Shown here piece by piece: positions 2,589-8,845 of a DNA stretch of 64,000 nucleotides (its first letter is position 1; each line of letters begins with the position of its first letter). A program made the translations under genes and the position numbers. This DNA is from a bacterium (lineage in GTDB: Bacteria; Bdellovibrionota; Bdellovibrionia; Bdellovibrionales; Bdellovibrionaceae), in NCBI GenBank assembly GCA_019752925.1, contig JAIELP010000001.1, forward strand, positions 124,001 to 188,000, given 5' to 3'. The notes under the pieces are model-generated. The model was not told where the DNA came from. It did no database searches and saw nothing but the letters and a program-made list of their open reading frames with translations.

Positions 2589-2978
2589 ATGGCCCTTAAG
2601 TGTTTAATAGTCGAAGACTCACCCTTTATGTGCGAGATATACCGCTACTCTTTGAGCGGTGTCAGCGATTTCAGTATAGCGGCAGAGGCGCACGATGGTG
2701 AGGAAGCCACAAATTTGCTTAGACAAATCCAGCCAGACGTACTTATTCTCGATTTGGTTTTGCCCAAAAAAAATGGATTAGATATTTTGAAGGAGTTGCC
2801 TTCACTTTCTCCGTCTACAAAAGTAATAGTGATTTCATCTCTTGAGAATGAGGCCATTATTAATCAGGCCAAAGCTCTTGGAGCTATAGTTTATTTAACA
2901 AAGCCATTTACAAAAGCACAACTTGTTACAGCAATTGAAGACATCAGCAAGCATTATTCAGAGGTACAGAATGGATGA
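2589..2978 (+). CDS. Single-domain response regulator (CheY-like receiver)
   Basis: 129 residues, exactly one receiver domain and no output domain. Phosphorylation-site residues are all present: acidic pair E9-D10 in LIVEDS, phosphoacceptor D55 in LILDLVLPKKNG, S83 in VISS, and K105 in TKPF. Such stand-alone receivers pass phosphate or bind motor or pilus targets rather than DNA; the partner kinase is not in the window. The gene ends in ATGGATGA, so the next gene's ATG lies inside its last codons, implying translational coupling. There is no clear Shine-Dalgarno before the ATG. Confidence 0.9.
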   Translation: MALKCLIVEDSPFMCEIYRYSLSGVSDFSIAAEAHDGEEATNLLRQIQPDVLILDLVLPKKNGLDILKELPSLSPSTKVIVISSLENEAIINQAKALGAIVYLTKPFTKAQLVTAIEDISKHYSEVQNG

Positions 2979-3357
2979 GTTTAAATTTGTTATAAAATGT
3001 TTCGGCTTCGCAGCTATATTTATGATCTTAACACAGGTTAAAACGGGCGAAACAACTTTGGAGCAACAGATTGAAGCTTCGTTAGTTAACTCAACAGTTT
3101 CAGATTTTGTAAATAAAGTTGCACATGGTGGCGTAAAGCTTATTAAAGACAGCGCTAATTCAGCAAAAGAATCTTATTATAACTGGAAACACTCTGACAG
3201 CGGAAAAGCCATTAAATCTGAATCTGTGACTAAAAAAGAAGAAACTGCAGCTCAGGAACCTATTGTAAAACCAGAAATTTCAAAAATTAAATTTGAAGAA
3301 GCCCAAGCCAAAATAGAAGAGCTCAGCGTCGAAGACGATGAGCCCGTTGAAGAATAG
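2971..3357 (+). CDS. Small membrane-anchored protein coupled to the receiver
   Basis: I chose the ATG at 2971, not the longer frame from 2923. It has a GAGG Shine-Dalgarno at 2961-2964 with 6-base spacing, and the resulting 128-residue protein begins MDEFKF followed by one hydrophobic segment (~6-22, CFGFAAIFMILT). The rest is hydrophilic, Lys/Glu-rich and predicted helical, with an acidic end (EDDEPVEE). No family recognised. The 8-base overlap with the receiver gene suggests the two are made together; whether the proteins interact is inference. Confidence 0.7.
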   Translation: MDEFKFVIKCFGFAAIFMILTQVKTGETTLEQQIEASLVNSTVSDFVNKVAHGGVKLIKDSANSAKESYYNWKHSDSGKAIKSESVTKKEETAAQEPIVKPEISKIKFEEAQAKIEELSVEDDEPVEE

Positions 3358-3370
3358 TTAAAATTAAATA

Positions 3371-3562
3371 TTAGTTGCCAACAGGAACAGCGCCAGGAGC
3401 TGAAGCTTTGCTGCTTGCTACAGATGATGCTTTACCTGGAACAAATGCATGCTTTGCAGAACTACGTAGCATAGATTTTGTTTTATTCTTTAGCTCACAT
3501 GAATGAGCGTTAGCTCCGATGAAAGAAGCCGCTACTACAAATAACATTACTACCTTTTTCAT
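3371..3562 (-). CDS. Tiny exported protein, 63 residues
   Basis: It starts with a typical signal peptide (KKVVMLFVVAASFIGANA, cleavage likely after ANA). The mature part is about 44 residues with one Cys, basic in the first half and Ser/Ala/Gly/Pro-rich in the second (ASSVASSKASAPGAVPVGN). A strong AAGGAG Shine-Dalgarno precedes the ATG with ~7-base spacing. It follows another mini secreted protein (3768-4004) at the tail of the Tad operon, and a 205-base gap holding an inverted repeat separates them. No homology recognised; composition and position make it a candidate accessory of the pilus/hit region. Confidence 0.65.
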   Translation of the reverse strand: MKKVVMLFVVAASFIGANAHSCELKNKTKSMLRSSAKHAFVPGKASSVASSKASAPGAVPVGN

Positions 3563-3669
3563 ACTAATCTCCTTAGTTGAGTTCTATATCTGAATAGATG
3601 TATTGCGAAGACGATGCCAACGAAGAGCTAAAATAGAACATTAAAGATTATGCAATTTCAGGTACTTAG

Positions 3670-3750
3670 AAGAGTGTATTTTAATGAGACTGGTAAATTA
3701 TTAGACAGGTGTTGTTCAAAACATCGAGCGTATCAGATTGATACACTCTT
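3670..3750. repeat. 10-bp inverted repeat with nested hairpin between two mini-genes
   Basis: AAGAGTGTAT (3670-3679) is perfectly complementary to ATACACTCTT (3741-3750) across a 61-base interval. The right arm overlaps a smaller hairpin, GTATC (3730-3734) with GATAC (3740-3744). In the minus-strand transcript downstream of 3768 these could form alternative structures, such as a terminator/antiterminator pair or an RNA-stability element. Confidence 0.4.
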
Positions 3751-3767
3751 AATGTTATTGAGAATGA

Positions 3768-4004
3768 TTAGTCGTCAGTACCAGCTGGAGCAGTTGGTGG
3801 AGTAGCAGAAGGTTTCTTTTTAGAACCACGTCTATCAGGTCTATACACGCCTTTGTTGTTTCCTAGGCTAGCTGTTCCAGGTGTTAACATCTTAGGACAG
3901 TCTTTACATTGTGGCGAAAACCAGTTGGCTTCAGTGTTTGTTGATTGCGCGAGTGCTACAACCCCAAAACTTACTATTGATAAAACTAATAACATTAATT
4001 TCAT
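3768..4004 (-). CDS. Small exported protein in the hit (Bd0108-like) position
   Basis: 78 residues: signal peptide (KLMLLVLSIVSFGVVALA, then QSTN), then ~58 mature residues with a CKDC motif (two Cys two residues apart) and a Pro/Thr/Ala-rich C-terminus after a basic RRGSKKK patch. A GAGAGG Shine-Dalgarno precedes the ATG. It sits 10 bases after the RHS-protein gene, at the distal end of the Flp/Tad operon. From memory, B. bacteriovorus has the small periplasmic hit protein Bd0108 next to the RHS/WapA-like Bd0109 and Tad genes, so this is a positional counterpart. I cannot confirm sequence homology. Confidence 0.65.
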   Translation of the reverse strand: MKLMLLVLSIVSFGVVALAQSTNTEANWFSPQCKDCPKMLTPGTASLGNNKGVYRPDRRGSKKKPSATPPTAPAGTDD

Positions 4005-4014
4005 ATAGACCTCT

Positions 4015-5691
4015 CTATAAATTATATAAATCTTGGGTGGCGGGTGAAATTACATCTAATAAGTTATTGAAAGTGCTGGCCACTTGAGAAGCTACTGTTG
4101 GGCCTTCTGCACTTTCTACTTTAGCAATTTCACCATTAACTTTATAGCTGACTTTAATTGTTCCTAAACCCGGGCGTGACACAATCGCCGGTTTGCCAAA
4201 TCTTTCTTCGTAATCAATTTTAACAACTTTTTTGGCTTGATCTGTGATTGTCGCAATTCGGCCCTTTATATCGTAAGTCATATTAATTTTCTGACCGTCA
4301 GAGTTTTCAGCATAACTTAAATTACCTTTGGGATCGTATTTAAAACTTGTTGTAAGAACTGAAATCGGTTTGCCTTTTTCATTGAAGAAAGTACTTTTTA
4401 CAGTAGCTACTTTTTTAGTAGTTGGGTCGTGAGTAAATTCAACTCGTGCATTTGATGCTTCTTTTGTTTTAATTAAACCATCTGGGTAATATTCAAAAGT
4501 CACTTTTTCATTATTCTTTTTAATTGAAACTGCTTTACCTAAAGTATCGTGGTAAGTTATGTCCTGAGTGCTGCCGTTAGTGTTAGTTAACACACGCGAC
4601 AAAATAACCTGACCACTTGGTAATTGCTTGTGCCAGAACTCATAACGATTATTGGCTACAACTTCTTTACCACAAGTTTTAACTACCGAAGACCAGTAGT
4701 GAAATTTAGGCTGAGATGTAGAGTTTTCGTACTTATAATTTTCTACACACTTGTCGCGATCTGTGAAGCCAAGAACCCAGTCTTTAATATTATCGTATTT
4801 AATTGCAATCCATGTTTTATCCGGCCAAGTTGCTTTAGTTAAATTGTGGAACTCATTATATTCATAGGTATAAACATCTTTATCGGTTTTTGCCCAAGCA
4901 TTTTTATTCCAGATTAAATCTTCCTGAGAATTATATTTATACTCCGTTATTAAGCTGTTGGGCCCAGTGATCATTTTAACTTTTTTGTTAGGCCAATATC
5001 TAAAAACAAGTTTACGTGCGTTGTTATCTTCTAATTGTACTAATAAATCTTTATCATATTCGAACTTAAGGAAGTTTCCGTTTTTATCGTACATATGAGT
5101 TAAACGGCCGGCGCTATCAAAACGCTGGCTGCTGCCATCTGGTAAGTTACGCGTGTAAAAGCCTTTGCTAACAACAACGCTTTCAACTTCTTTACCATTA
5201 GCGATTAGTTTTGAACCTTCTTTAAGCGGAACAACAATTTTATACTGGTAGGCTAATTCAGACCTCTGATCAGCATCTTCAACTAAGTCATCAGAAAGTT
5301 TTTTCCAATAATCAGCTGAAACTACTTTAACTTTCGGGTCTGTTTTCATTTTTCCAATAATTTGTGTAATAGTATTGTCTACATCTTTGCGGGTAATTTC
5401 ACGTGCTGAGAAAATAATTTCCTGACCGTCTCCGCATTCAGAAATTTTTACAGATCCTTCAGCAATTGGCTCAAGTTTAGTTTCAAAAGGCGAACACCAG
5501 CCAAAACCGAACATACCATTATAAAGAGTACGGCTTTTATAGGCGCGCATAACTTTCATATCGTAACCATTGCTTGGAACTTCTAAGTCAGTCCATAAAT
5601 TCGAATAACTAGCGCTATTCATATCTACAAGTGCATTAGCCTTCGGGTAAGTTAAGAATAAAGTCGCTAAAAGGACTAAACTATATTTCAT
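4015..5691 (-). CDS. Exported RHS/YD-repeat protein, Bd0109-like, end of Tad operon
   Basis: An ATG also exists at 5706, but the one at 5691 has GGAG 8 bases upstream and places a clean signal peptide first (KYSLVLLATLFLTYPKANA). The 558-residue product opens like RHS proteins (YDMKVMRAYKSRTLYNGMFG, then FGWCSPFE), followed by YD repeats such as YDKNGNFLKFEYD, YKYNSQEDLIWN and YDPKGNLSYAENSDGQ. Classical RHS proteins are >1000 residues with a toxin tip. This one is short, has no conserved RHS core boundary and no visible toxin domain. It directly follows the TadB/C gene (zero spacing). By layout it matches Bd0109, reported to act with Bd0108 in pilus-linked control of prey-independent growth; that link is inference. 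Confidence 0.8.
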   Translation of the reverse strand: MKYSLVLLATLFLTYPKANALVDMNSASYSNLWTDLEVPSNGYDMKVMRAYKSRTLYNGMFGFGWCSPFETKLEPIAEGSVKISECGDGQEIIFSAREITRKDVDNTITQIIGKMKTDPKVKVVSADYWKKLSDDLVEDADQRSELAYQYKIVVPLKEGSKLIANGKEVESVVVSKGFYTRNLPDGSSQRFDSAGRLTHMYDKNGNFLKFEYDKDLLVQLEDNNARKLVFRYWPNKKVKMITGPNSLITEYKYNSQEDLIWNKNAWAKTDKDVYTYEYNEFHNLTKATWPDKTWIAIKYDNIKDWVLGFTDRDKCVENYKYENSTSQPKFHYWSSVVKTCGKEVVANNRYEFWHKQLPSGQVILSRVLTNTNGSTQDITYHDTLGKAVSIKKNNEKVTFEYYPDGLIKTKEASNARVEFTHDPTTKKVATVKSTFFNEKGKPISVLTTSFKYDPKGNLSYAENSDGQKINMTYDIKGRIATITDQAKKVVKIDYEERFGKPAIVSRPGLGTIKVSYKVNGEIAKVESAEGPTVASQVASTFNNLLDVISPATQDLYNL

Positions 5692-5706: not shown

Positions 5707-6609
5707 TTACACCTTAATTGTAACAATTTTTTTAATCATCACTCCACCGATAATTTGCAAACCTAGCATAGCGGCGAGGAACAATAAGCCCAAGGTCGTG
5801 GTGAACATGGGCATAATGTGATCTGGGTCTAACGCATAAAATACGCCCATTAATAAAAACGGAATAGATGTTACGATAATTCCTTGCATAACCCCTTGCG
5901 CAGTCATTGCCGAAATCTTCTTTTCTAGCTTTTGTCTTTCACGGATTGTTAAAACAATTGTTTGGAAAGTTTCCGATAAATTACCACCGGTCTCTTTTAA
6001 AATATTAATGGCAACCACAAACATTTGTACGTCTGGACGTGGAATTCTAACAGAAAGATCTGTTAAGGCTTCCTCAAAGCTCTGACCAAATTGAGTTTGT
6101 GTAATTACTTGACCAAACTCCGCGCTGATAGGGTTACCCATAATTTCAACAACTCTTTGCATAGATTGCTGCGGATTGGAGCCGGATTTAATACCGTTGG
6201 CCATAATTGTTAAGCCATCCACCATTTGTTCAACAAACAAGTTACATCTTTTTTCATAGAGTGACTTGAAAATAATAGGAGGGAGTTGAAAACCTGCTAT
6301 GCCGGCGGAAATTCCAAGAAAAAATCCCACAAGAACATTAGGCCAAGTTGCAATAAAAAATAAAAATCCAAGACCGAAACTTGAAAGTAAAAGCATGCGT
6401 GTAACTTTTTTTTCGTCAACATCCATGCCCAATAACTTCATGTGCATGATGATGCTGGTTTTTTTCCCCTGACTTTTTTCATAAAGTTTAACTAAAAGTT
6501 TATCGGCCCAAAAATACAGTGCAAAGAAAGTAGCAATACCGAAGATGGGTAAAGCAATCCAGTCGTGTCTTAAAATTGATTCCAGAAAAGGTATGTCTTT
6601 ATAATCCAT
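5707..6609 (-). CDS. tadB: Tad pilus inner-membrane platform protein (TadB/TadC, GspF fold)
   Basis: 300 residues. The T2SSF/GspF domain spans ~120-250 (FVEQMVDGLTIMANGIKSG, then LPRPD-like RIPRPDVQMFVVAINILKETGGNLSE). Two hydrophobic segments lie at the N-terminal side (~20-35 and ~72-105) and two at the C-terminus (~245-295), ending in IKKIVTIKV as TadB proteins do. It anchors the assembly ATPase at the inner membrane. Tad systems normally carry two such proteins, TadB and TadC; only this one is in the window. AGGAGG lies 4-9 bases ahead of its ATG. Confidence 0.88.
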   Translation of the reverse strand: MDYKDIPFLESILRHDWIALPIFGIATFFALYFWADKLLVKLYEKSQGKKTSIIMHMKLLGMDVDEKKVTRMLLLSSFGLGFLFFIATWPNVLVGFFLGISAGIAGFQLPPIIFKSLYEKRCNLFVEQMVDGLTIMANGIKSGSNPQQSMQRVVEIMGNPISAEFGQVITQTQFGQSFEEALTDLSVRIPRPDVQMFVVAINILKETGGNLSETFQTIVLTIRERQKLEKKISAMTAQGVMQGIIVTSIPFLLMGVFYALDPDHIMPMFTTTLGLLFLAAMLGLQIIGGVMIKKIVTIKV

Positions 6610-6622
6610 AATCTCCTCCTGA

Positions 6623-8845
6623 TTATCCTACTTTTTTAACTGGTGGTGCCGGAGTGGCCGGTGCGCCTGGTTTAGGCGCGCCAGCTGTCGGAGCCGGTGC
6701 AGCCTTAGGAGCTTCATTCGAGAAGATCTCCATAGGAATATGTCCACCCTTGTCTTTAATTTCTTGCGCAAATGAAGGAACAGTACCGGTTGATTGGAAC
6801 TGGCCGATAATTTTTCTGTTTTTATCGTAGCCCGTTTCTTTATATTTAAAGATTTCAGCTAAAGTTACAACGTCACCTTGCATACCGACAACTTCGGTAA
6901 TACTGATAATTTTACGACTACCATCAGATAAACGTACGATCTGTACGATCAAATCTACGGCACCTGCAATTTGTTGACGAATGGCGCTAACAGGTAAATC
7001 TAAGCCTGACATCATCACAAGAGTTTCTAAACGCGCCAAACACTCACGAGGCGAGTTGGCATGTGTAGTTGTCATTGAACCATCATGACCTGTATTCATG
7101 GCCTGCAACATATCAAGTGCGGCGCCGTCACGCGTTTCCCCCACCACGATACGGTCGGGACGCATACGCAGAGCATTCTTAATTAAGTCACGAATGGTAA
7201 CCGCATTTGTACCTTCCATAGAAGGTGGACGTGTTTCAAGTCGTACAACGTGCTCTTGCATCATCTGTAGCTCGGCCGCGTCTTCCACTGTGATAACACG
7301 TTCATGTGCGGGGATAAATTGCGAGATCATATTTAATAAAGATGTTTTACCGGAACCTGTACCACCACTGATAACCACGTTATAACCGTACTCAACGGCG
7401 ATTTTCAAAAAGTCTAACATGTTTTTTGTGGCACTGCCGAATTCGATATACTTTTCGGGATTGATACCGCCTTTTTTAAACTTACGAATAGTAAGCGCGG
7501 GACCATCAAGAGCTAAAGGTTCAATTACGGCATTAACACGGGATCCGTCTTTTAAGCGGGCATCCACATAAGGTGTTGCGTTGTTAATCTGACGTCCAAG
7601 TGGAGTCACGATACGTTCGATAATACGTCGTAAGTGATCGTTAGAGGTAAATTTAATACCACTTAACTGAACCTTACCACCTTTCTCGACAAATATTTTA
7701 TTAGCACCATTAACCATAATCTCGGAAATAGCCGGGTCGGCTAACATATCTTCTAAAGGACCTAATCCTAAAGCCTCTTCTAATACGTCTTTAACGAGCT
7801 TCTGACGCTCATCACGGGCTAAATCGGGAGCTTCTTTATCGACGATCAAACCGATATCTCGCTGAGTTTTAGCGCGCATTTCTTTTTCTTTATTTTCATT
7901 ATCGCCGGCTTCAGCCAAGATCTTTTTAAGATCGATTGTACGGATAAGTTCGGAGTGTACACGTAATTTTAATAAAGTTTTTGCATCATATTGGCCGCTC
8001 GCTGTTGCTGCAGCAATGGCCGGATCAGTTCCGCCACCGCCACTTGCAGCTGCCGGGGCAGGAGCAGGTTTAGGACGTTGAACCGTTTTTAATTTTTGTA
8101 AAACACCGCCAGTTAATTTTCTTACAACATCAAAGTAAGCAGCCGAAAGCGGGGATTTCGGGTTTACCACCACAAACGGTTTTGAAGCTGCCAATGAAGC
8201 TGAGCTTGTAACTTCATCTGCAGGGATTAAAGCTAAAGGATTTAATCCTAAATGCTGTCCGATCACCTGTGGAGTTAAACCTGAATTAGAATATTTATTT
8301 AAAACCAACTGAAACATTTCCTTTGGATATGTCTGAGTTAATAAGTCGTTGATCAATCTCTGTGTTTGCTGAACAACTAAAATTTCAGGAGTTGAAACGA
8401 TTGTGATTGCAGTAGCTTCTTGCAAGAAGGCATGTTGCATAGGTCCCATGTCGTTACCAAGATCCACAACAATAAATTTGAATGAGCGAGCAAAAAAATC
8501 TAAAAGTTTTCCTAAGTTTTCTGGAGATACATTTAAAATTTCTTCTGGTCCACGTACAGCACCTAAGTAAGAGAATCCGCCGGGGTGAGGTGTAACAATT
8601 GATTGTAACGGAGTTGAGTTAAGTGATTGTGTCGTGTTAGCTAATTCACGTAAAGTTTTTAAAGGTTTTAAACCAGTGATAATATTTTGATCGCCCACAC
8701 TCTTAGTGTCGCAGTCGATCAGCAGAGTTGGTTGTCTTAATTCCATCGCGAGAGCTGCCGTGAAGTTAGCCGCAAACACGGATTTACCCACGCCGCCTTT
8801 ACCACCGACAACAGCTATTAAATTACATTGAGGATTGATTGCCAA
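6623..8845 (-). CDS. tadA: TadZ-TadA fusion: MinD/ParA-like localiser plus pilus assembly ATPase
   Basis: 740 residues joining two proteins that are usually separate. Residues 1-~250 are a ParA/MinD ATPase (deviant Walker A GGKGGVGKS, 14-22; VVDLG at ~127), matching TadZ/CpaE, which places the machine in the cell. A Pro/Ala/Gly linker (~258-278) leads to a CpaF/TadA secretion ATPase (~290-690). That part carries Walker A GGTGSGKTS (494-502), Walker B RIVVGE (565-570) and the His-box region GHDGSMTTTHANSP. The tail is Ala/Pro-rich. It powers Flp pilin polymerisation at the cytoplasmic face. No phosphoreceiver domain precedes the ParA part, unlike many CpaE proteins. A GGAGG-type site precedes the ATG. 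Confidence 0.92.
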   Translation of the reverse strand: MAINPQCNLIAVVGGKGGVGKSVFAANFTAALAMELRQPTLLIDCDTKSVGDQNIITGLKPLKTLRELANTTQSLNSTPLQSIVTPHPGGFSYLGAVRGPEEILNVSPENLGKLLDFFARSFKFIVVDLGNDMGPMQHAFLQEATAITIVSTPEILVVQQTQRLINDLLTQTYPKEMFQLVLNKYSNSGLTPQVIGQHLGLNPLALIPADEVTSSASLAASKPFVVVNPKSPLSAAYFDVVRKLTGGVLQKLKTVQRPKPAPAPAAASGGGGTDPAIAAATASGQYDAKTLLKLRVHSELIRTIDLKKILAEAGDNENKEKEMRAKTQRDIGLIVDKEAPDLARDERQKLVKDVLEEALGLGPLEDMLADPAISEIMVNGANKIFVEKGGKVQLSGIKFTSNDHLRRIIERIVTPLGRQINNATPYVDARLKDGSRVNAVIEPLALDGPALTIRKFKKGGINPEKYIEFGSATKNMLDFLKIAVEYGYNVVISGGTGSGKTSLLNMISQFIPAHERVITVEDAAELQMMQEHVVRLETRPPSMEGTNAVTIRDLIKNALRMRPDRIVVGETRDGAALDMLQAMNTGHDGSMTTTHANSPRECLARLETLVMMSGLDLPVSAIRQQIAGAVDLIVQIVRLSDGSRKIISITEVVGMQGDVVTLAEIFKYKETGYDKNRKIIGQFQSTGTVPSFAQEIKDKGGHIPMEIFSNEAPKAAPAPTAGAPKPGAPATPAPPVKKVG

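What the first reader, a model, noticed from the sequence alone, without database searches (positions are those of the whole stretch)
3371..5691. Hit-locus counterpart (RHS protein plus tiny exported proteins) attached to the Flp/Tad operon
Seen: an exported 558-residue YD-repeat protein directly after the TadB/C gene, then a 78-residue exported protein with a CKDC motif 10 bases later, then a 63-residue exported protein. Known (from memory): in B. bacteriovorus the small exported Bd0108 (hit) and RHS/WapA-like Bd0109 lie next to Flp/Tad genes, and their mutation allows prey-independent growth. Inference: these genes are the same control module in this organism, with a possible second mini-protein as an extra component.
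Basis: partly seen in the sequence, partly recalled or inferred. Interest (0 to 1): 0.75.

Follow-up and report, generated by a model that had tools for sequence, protein, structure and literature searches.

The report
Hit-locus counterpart with overlooked exported microprotein
This is the predation-switch (hit) locus of a Bdellovibrio relative, and its second tiny exported protein sits where a transcript published in Bdellovibrio as a non-coding RNA lies, which gives the study of the growth switch a new, testable protein.

Summary
The three ORFs exist as described. The RHS protein is the Bd0109 counterpart: 62% identity over 551 aa, after a TadB/C gene, the only full-length copy found in this genome. 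The 78-aa CKDC protein (M1) sits where Bd0108 does, but BLAST finds no similarity, the curated hit_Bd0108 model misses it, and profiles support kinship only weakly.

The surprise is the 63-aa protein (M2). It is probably not part of the Tad operon: it has its own sigma54-type promoter and converges on a response-regulator/membrane-protein pair (Bd0102/Bd0103 positions). This recurs across Bdellovibrionales: M2 in 71 of 73 loci with the membrane gene, a sigma54 element at 70 of 77 copies, exactly one cysteine in 74 of 77.

In HD100 the gene at that position is a 66-codon ORF inside a published 261-nt "non-coding sRNA" that rises in bd0108 mutants. dN/dS is 0.00-0.09 in four close pairs; no RNA structure was detected. 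The "sRNA" is most likely an mRNA for an exported microprotein.

Inferred, untested: M2 acts through its cysteine on Bd0103 or the RHS-M1 pair. Against: mature M2 does not align between genera, and rpoN was not found in this assembly.

The parts
4015..5691 (-). Exported RHS/YD-repeat protein, Bd0109 counterpart (558 aa; alternative start 5706)
   Evidence: 62% identity over 551 aa to the HD100 copy; RHS_repeat and DUF6531; AlphaFold pLDDT 83.5, beta-rich, RHS shells as nearest folds
3768..4004 (-). M1: 78-aa exported CKDC mini-protein, positional counterpart of Bd0108
   Evidence: not matched by NCBIfam hit_Bd0108; CxxC in 42 of 69 order-wide M1s
3726..3748 (-). Terminator-like hairpin between M1 and M2
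   Evidence: 2 found in the scanned stretch against a shuffle mean of 2.1, so weak alone; a hairpin plus T-run is seen by eye at the same place in HD100
3603..3620 (-). sigma54-type -24/-12 promoter element of M2 (TTGGCATCGTCTTCGCAA)
   Evidence: score 10 of 11; 70 of 77 M2 copies order-wide score 9 or more, against about 1.5% of shuffles and 2.4% of random windows of the same loci (which include real sites)
3371..3562 (-). M2: 63-aa exported single-cysteine microprotein, counterpart by position and promoter of the HD100 transcript published as a hit-locus sRNA
2971..3357 (+). Bd0103-position small protein with one N-terminal transmembrane-like helix, convergent with M2
   Evidence: helix 2-22 in the model; gene found in 36 of 39 genomes searched, own included
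2589..2978 (+). Bd0102-position CheY-like response regulator; its stop overlaps the start of the membrane protein by 8 bases
   Evidence: Response_reg 4.7e-25; overlap
5707..6609 (-). TadB/C-type inner-membrane protein (Bd0110 position)
   Evidence: T2SSF 8.5e-18; a related ORF lies just before the RHS gene in 94 of 97 loci with enough upstream sequence
6623..8845 (-). CpaE-like ParA/MinD domain fused to a TadA ATPase (Bd0111 position)
   Evidence: CbiA and T2SSE domains; TIGR03819 4.9e-89, below its curated cut-off; a 739-aa ORF at the same place in HD100

Best explanation
The region is the hit locus of a Bdellovibrionales species of the genus that includes Bdellovibrio qaytius, and it holds two units. 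Unit 1 is the end of the Tad operon: Tad genes, RHS protein (Bd0109 counterpart), then M1, a small exported CxxC protein in the Bd0108 position. Unit 2 is M2 alone, an exported microprotein with one cysteine, transcribed from its own sigma54-type promoter and facing an overlapping gene pair (CheY-like regulator plus small membrane protein, Bd0102/Bd0103 positions). In B. bacteriovorus HD100 the M2 counterpart is the transcript published as a 261-nt non-coding sRNA that rises in bd0108 mutants; it is most likely an mRNA for a 66-aa exported protein. Likely working, inferred: in attack phase the FliA-driven Tad/RHS/M1 unit keeps the periplasmic pilus sensor in place. When that state is lost (prey entry, or bd0108 mutation), a sigma54 activator turns on M2, which enters the periplasm and, through its lone cysteine or disordered tail, acts on the Bd0103-like membrane protein (which could be the unidentified membrane protein of the Capeness model) or on RHS-M1, with the CheY-like protein as cytoplasmic output. 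Supported by sequence here: gene layout, promoter element, coding selection. Inferred: export, use of the promoter, partner, direction of the effect. The confidence given is for the anatomy and the coding reading; the working model alone is about 0.2-0.3.
For: RHS 62% identity to HD100 and the same gene order. Published sRNA primers match exactly in one of 24 genomes of G018's genus, at 96555-96652 of a 3,782,950-base chromosome, inside the published sRNA coordinates 96455-96716 (PMC3818213 section 14) and inside ORF 96483-96683. Purifying selection on that ORF and its relatives: syn/nonsyn 15/3, 12/1, 15/0 and 17/6 in four close pairs, dN/dS 0.00-0.09; nine pairs, three of them the same, 0.00-0.25. 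AGGAG and ATG invariant in 12 sequences. RNA fold z +0.34, consensus energy -0.07 kcal/mol, no Rfam family. M2 in 71 of 73 loci, tandem copies in 6; shuffles 17 of 2920. sigma54 element at 70 of 77 copies, shuffles about 1.5%. Exactly one Cys in 74 of 77 M2s, 27.8 expected. M2 stays beside the Bd0103-like gene in four genomes where the RHS gene is 54, 18 or about 4 kb away, or not found full length. rpoN in 35 of 39 genomes; 8 strong sigma54-activator domains in this genome. Passages of PMC5430801 state that the Tad operon is FliA-controlled.
Against: Mature M2 does not align between the window's genus and Bdellovibrio (hhalign 5.2, best of 40 shuffles 11.1), and BLAST of window M2 against HD100 M2 finds nothing, so kinship rests on place, promoter and architecture. 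In six more diverged pairs dN/dS is 0.21-0.42 (three) or synonymous sites are saturated (three). Six M2 copies have no sigma54 element and one scores 7. The promoter pattern is genome-wide no commoner than its backward control when both genomes are taken together with their spread (8 and 19 sites against 11 and 12). The window's own genome is one of the 4 of 39 without an rpoN match; the assembly is 94.4% complete and the lptB-rpoN stretch of G002 had no convincing DNA match (such a search can miss diverged DNA), so a gap is likely but not proven. Of 11 places scanned where the layout differs, 7 show no M2. No protein, export, disulfide or interaction data on M2 were seen. The RNA could also act as an RNA.
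Confidence: 0.8

Rival explanations
1. The HD100 transcript is a true regulatory sRNA, as published, and the ORF is incidental or secondary.
For: Published as a 261-nt sRNA, higher in bd0108 mutants (PMC3818213 section 14). No protein data were seen. A dual-function RNA cannot be excluded.
Against: dN/dS 0.00-0.09 in close pairs, conserved AGGAG and start codon, no stable or consensus RNA structure detected, no Rfam match, exported-protein architecture in 71 of 73 loci.
Confidence: 0.06
2. One reading: M2 is simply a third gene of the Tad-RHS-M1 operon.
For: Same strand, and downstream of M1 in most loci that have both.
Against: A 205-base gap with a hairpin in the window (hairpin weak), its own sigma54 element, and M2 without the RHS gene nearby in four genomes. 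In HD100 the M2 transcript rises in bd0108 mutants, while bd0108-0121 is listed as down in host-independent strains.
Confidence: 0.08
3. M1 is not a descendant of the same gene as Bd0108 but an unrelated small exported CxxC protein at the same place.
For: No BLAST match; the hit_Bd0108 model misses it although it matches 27 of 69 order-wide M1s.
Against: Profile without signal peptides 23.9 (probability 31%) against at most 12.1 in 40 shuffles; an M1 at the same place after RHS in 69 of 73 loci; the nearest relative found is the G002 CRDC protein, by position A11Q_2208, reported at 28% identity to Bd0108 (PMC4267844 passages).
Confidence: 0.25
4. The RHS gene is a polymorphic contact-dependent toxin and a mini-protein is its immunity partner.
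For: RHS repeats and a small gene directly behind; the nearest folds and sequences in the PDB include RHS toxin shells.
Against: Only 563 aa, with a conserved C-terminal end and helix instead of a variable toxin domain; a TadB/C-type gene before it in 94 of 97 loci; Bd0108 was deletable and bd0109 was not (PMC3818213 abstract and passages), the reverse of toxin-immunity logic.
Confidence: 0.03

Closest known systems
hit (host-interaction) locus of B. bacteriovorus HD100: Bd0108/Bd0109 plus Tad genes
   Same: RHS protein after the Tad genes, then a small exported CxxC protein, then the sRNA/M2 position, then convergent Bd0103/Bd0102-position genes
   Different: The window M1 is shorter (78 against 101 aa), lacks the N-terminal NPGEDPNEA-type motif of the Bd0108 group and is not matched by the hit_Bd0108 model
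   Same: The protein in the A11Q_2208 position (CRDC) is the best relative of the window M1 among those compared
   Different: In G002 that pair lies away from the Tad genes, and the Tad-linked RHS of G002 is followed by an M1 without cysteine. In the window the CKDC protein is at the Tad locus and one full-length RHS copy was found
Published hit-locus sRNA of HD100 (PMC3818213)
   Same: Same position as M2; the HD100 ORF lies wholly within the published coordinates
   Different: Read here as an mRNA for an exported protein, with a sigma54-type promoter
[quoted passage not shown]
   Same: Both papers noticed short genes here; BD_RS00505 is probably the HD100 M2 (its coordinates were not seen)
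   Different: In the passages read, neither links them to the sRNA, to sigma54, to the single cysteine or to coding selection

Membership tests
hit locus (Bd0108/Bd0109 type) | Bd0109-type exported RHS protein directly after Tad genes | tested here: met
   62% identity over 551 aa; gene order
hit locus (Bd0108/Bd0109 type) | Small exported CxxC protein directly behind it | tested here: met
   CKDC, 10-base gap; export judged by composition only
hit locus (Bd0108/Bd0109 type) | Mutation gives prey-independent growth; the two proteins bind each other | not testable with these tools
   Seen only for HD100 in the papers read (PMC3818213, PMC4267844)
NCBIfam NF053838 hit_Bd0108 (equivalog) | Score above the curated cut-off of 40 bits | tested here: not met
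   Window M1 has no listed match to this model at E 1 or 0.01; HD100 Bd0108 scores 102 bits; 27 of 69 M1s match at E 0.01
Bd0108 family by descent | Detectable sequence relationship of the mature protein | tested here: inconclusive
   BLAST none; hhalign without signal peptide 23.9, probability 31%, best of 40 shuffles 12.1
sigma54-dependent gene | TGGCAY-N5-NNGCW (GG-N10-GC) upstream of the gene | tested here: met
   Window score 10 of 11; 70 of 77 copies score 9 or more
sigma54-dependent gene | The organism encodes RpoN | tested here: inconclusive
   35 of 39 genomes yes, own assembly no; activators present; probable assembly gap
sigma54-dependent gene | Expression lost without RpoN | not testable with these tools
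Regulatory non-coding sRNA | No selected coding frame; conserved RNA structure | tested here: not met
   (HD100 and its relatives)
RHS polymorphic toxin | Variable C-terminal toxin domain behind the RHS shell | tested here: not met
   563 aa, conserved C-terminus

The most novel reading that the evidence does not exclude
M2 is the missing growth-side signal of the hit system: a sigma54-driven, exported, single-cysteine microprotein, conserved across Bdellovibrionales and mistaken for an sRNA in the model strain, which acts on the Bd0103-type membrane protein and its CheY partner to release growth, opposite to the FliA-driven Bd0108/Bd0109 attack-phase state.
Probability: 0.2. Interest if true: 0.85.

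Novelty: new variant of a known kind. Interest (0 to 1): 0.62.

Why it matters
How the hit locus tells a Bdellovibrio cell to start growing is a long-standing question (the 2013 abstract calls the mechanism elusive). One lead in that paper was a supposed sRNA whose predicted top targets were hypothetical proteins. If that RNA is the mRNA of an exported microprotein with a sigma54 promoter, the search should turn from RNA targets to a protein in the envelope, to its sigma54 activator, and to the Bd0103/Bd0102 pair, each open to a simple knockout. A separate sigma factor would fit its rise in bd0108 mutants while the Tad genes fall. The layout recurs over much of the order, so the switch may be shared widely, epibiotic predators included (inference).

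Tried and rejected
RHS as toxin: rejected on length and conserved C-terminus.

M2 as an ncRNA: rejected on coding selection and lack of detectable RNA structure.

M2 as a second Bd0108 copy: the profile comparison aligned only the signal peptide, and mature parts gave 8.7 and 11.1 against Bd0108, so it is not treated as a paralogue.

M2 homology by sequence between genera: failed. Searching genomes with the M2 profile found one convincing place each in G000, G002, G018 and G039, but three of those sequences were in the profile and the fourth is nearly the same as one of them, so this is no independent test.

A FliA promoter for M2: motifs within 3 mismatches turned up in 27 of 71 upstream regions, too loose to mean anything.

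sigma54 regulon: YTGGCAYN6YGCWW gave 8 sites in this genome and 19 in HD100, with 11 and 12 for the backward control pattern, so genome-wide counts are at or near chance level. The M2 case rests on conservation, not on rarity. I recognised no site at a pilin gene among the ORFs printed, but pilA itself was not located, so co-regulation with the type IVa pilin is neither shown nor excluded.

Loci dropped before counting: of 140 loci held, L051, L101, L106, L110 and L134-L140 were left out as partial, duplicate or other copies; the remaining 129 gave 98 distinct RHS ends. Of these, 73 have the membrane gene within 2.5 kb; of the other 25, 7 have about 1 kb or less downstream. L038 counts as lacking M2 only because its signal peptide fell under the threshold; it has a 65-aa M2. 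The scan covered 11 chosen places. One search kept 80 of 145 confirmed stretches.

One search read the downstream side of minus-strand loci the wrong way round; and later ones corrected the orientation, and only those are used for counts.

Not in print: (open-licence PMC papers only) showed no paper that reads the hit-locus sRNA as a coding RNA; most of their rows were seen as listings only.

Full report
OBSERVATION. The three ORFs exist at the given places. The RHS ORF follows the T2SSF (TadB/C-type) gene directly; M1 (78 aa, CKDC) follows ten bases behind it; M2 (63 aa) starts 205 bases beyond M1. Pfam sees RHS repeats and DUF6531 in the RHS protein and nothing in the mini-proteins. The upstream gene 6623-8845 carries a ParA/MinD domain and a TadA-type ATPase in one ORF.

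WHOSE GENOME. The window is C3:124001-188000 of a 2.74 Mb, 14-contig genome, 94.4% complete. A same-genus genome (G013) has the contig length of Bdellovibrio sp. qaytius CP025734.1, and another (G002, 2,657,893 bases) fits B. exovorus JSS by recalled size.

RHS PROTEIN. Of 39 genomes searched, own included, 37 have a match; the window genome has one place. Against HD100 it is 62% identical over 551 aa. HD100 here is G039: 3,782,950 bases, with the primers of PMC3818213 matching exactly inside the coordinates that paper gives (section 14 read). Gene order in HD100 is the same. A TadB/C-type ORF stands just before the RHS gene in 94 of 97 distinct loci with enough upstream sequence; L095, L103 and L107 lack it. 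The AlphaFold model (24 sequences, pLDDT 83.5) is beta-rich with a C-terminal helix; nearest solved folds are RHS shells and teneurins. No toxin domain was found.

M1. Same place as Bd0108 and same CxxC, but no BLAST match and no match to the curated hit_Bd0108 model, which HD100 Bd0108 passes at 102 bits and 27 of 69 M1s match at E 0.01. Profiles with signal peptides give 96.5%. Without them they give a score of 23.9 and 31%, against at most 12.1 in 40 column shuffles. The closest relative compared is the CRDC protein of G002, by position the A11Q_2208 that PMC4267844 (passages) called the Bd0108 homologue of B. exovorus. In G002 it sits with a second RHS copy away from the Tad genes, while the Tad-linked M1 of G002 has no cysteine. 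The window shows a CxxC M1 at the Tad locus in that genus, which favours the Tad-linked place as a working hit locus there (inference). Over the order, M1 was found in 69 of 73 loci, with CxxC in 42 of 69 and an even cysteine count in 67 of 69, 3 of them zero.

M2, THE MAIN RESULT. Downstream of the RHS gene, 73 of 98 distinct loci carry a convergent small membrane-protein gene, 64 of 98 a CheY-like gene. Before the membrane gene, an exported small ORF with start codon and ribosome-binding site was found in 71 of 73, in 0 of 73 reverse-strand controls and in 17 of 2920 shuffles. Six loci have two copies in tandem. Exactly one cysteine after residue 18 occurs in 74 of 77 copies, where composition predicts 27.8. 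A sigma54-type -24/-12 element (score 9 or more of 11) precedes 70 of 77 copies; shuffles give about 1.5% and random windows of the same loci, real sites included, 2.4%. Each of the twelve tandem copies has its own.

THE PUBLISHED sRNA. [quoted passage not shown] Its RT-PCR primers match 96555-96652, inside a 66-codon ORF 96483-96683. The ORF begins MKKIVQATIAMSLIASVAMA and has one cysteine. A sigma54-type site lies at 96742-96759, predicting a start near 96732, 16 bases from the published upper edge; the strand of the RNA is not stated in the section read. Selection on the ORF: four close pairs give synonymous/nonsynonymous counts 15/3, 12/1, 15/0 and 17/6 (dN/dS 0.00-0.09); of six more diverged pairs three are saturated and three 0.21-0.42. 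Nine pairs, three of them the same, range 0.00-0.25, and M1 in those pairs 0.02-0.13. The AGGAG and ATG are invariant in 12 sequences. Fold z-score +0.34, consensus energy -0.07, no Rfam hit. PMC3627812 (passages) lists eight attack-phase sRNAs, none at 96 kb, and states that growth-phase sRNAs could not be placed.

A SEPARATE UNIT. In G015 and G017 the membrane gene lies 54 and 18 kb from the RHS gene, in G032 about 4 kb, and in G001 no full-length RHS was found; in these four, M2 with its sigma54 element stays beside the membrane gene, while 7 other scanned places show no M2. The CheY-like stop overlaps the membrane-protein start by 4-14 bases in 47 of 63 loci, starts being chosen by a simple rule. 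So M2 tends to travel with the Bd0102/Bd0103-type pair. Passages of PMC5430801 say that the Tad operon bd0109-0119 is FliA-controlled; M2 seems to follow another sigma factor. PMC3818213 lists bd0108-0121 as down in host-independent strains and the sRNA as up in bd0108 mutants, which fits.

MECHANISM, INFERRED. Mature M2 is Ser/Ala/Lys/Thr-rich, so probably disordered, with one free cysteine; an exported protein with a lone conserved cysteine suggests a mixed disulfide or homodimer. Candidate partners are the Bd0103-like protein (one N-terminal helix in a model of pLDDT 73; topology unknown), the RHS protein (invariant cysteines C71, C91, C320, C345 in 24 sequences) or M1 (CxxC). PMC3818213 (passages) proposes that Bd0109 signals through an unidentified membrane protein; Bd0103 is a good candidate by conservation and place. 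I put about 0.3 on M2 acting on Bd0103 or Bd0109 at all, and 0.2 on the full switch model.

WEAK POINTS. M2 kinship between genera is not shown by sequence. rpoN is not in this assembly, though 8 strong sigma54 activator domains are and the lptB-rpoN stretch of G002 has no convincing DNA match. Export was judged by composition. Genome-wide the promoter pattern gives 8 sites here and 19 in HD100 against 11 and 12 for its backward control. The terminator scan is at chance level. Two papers had noticed short genes here (PMC5941755 passages; PMC10469934 section 9).

VERDICT. Observation confirmed; interpretation right for RHS, plausible for M1, probably wrong on M2's operon. Interest 0.62 because a published regulatory RNA of a classic open problem is probably a protein gene.

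Noticed in passing
6623-8845: CpaE-like ParA/MinD domain and TadA ATPase fused in one 740-aa ORF; HD100 has a 739-aa ORF with a similar start at the same place.
   Followed up: partly
L125, L127, L128, L129, L130, L131: M2 is duplicated in tandem, each copy with its own sigma54-type element.
   Followed up: partly
G000 sites: L144, L146, L148, L150, L156, L158: Six of the eight sigma54-type sites of this genome lie 25-53 bases before ORFs that look exported; sigma54 may drive an envelope regulon here. Site counts alone are at chance level.
   Followed up: partly
L141 (G002) and L002: G002 has two RHS copies; the CxxC mini-protein is with the distal one and the Tad-linked one is followed by a 124-aa protein without cysteine.
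   Followed up: partly
L107, L103: RHS relatives in Roseovarius aestuarii (33%) and in a MAG labelled Alphaproteobacteria (36%), possible transfer or mislabelled bin; neither has the TadB/C-type ORF just before it.
   Followed up: no
773-2458: 561-aa exported-looking protein with a sub-threshold FlgT_C match; HD100 has a similar-looking 528-aa ORF near its hit locus (likeness by eye only).
   Followed up: no
G000 whole assembly: rpoN domains not found, while 8 strong sigma54-activator domains are present.
   Followed up: partly
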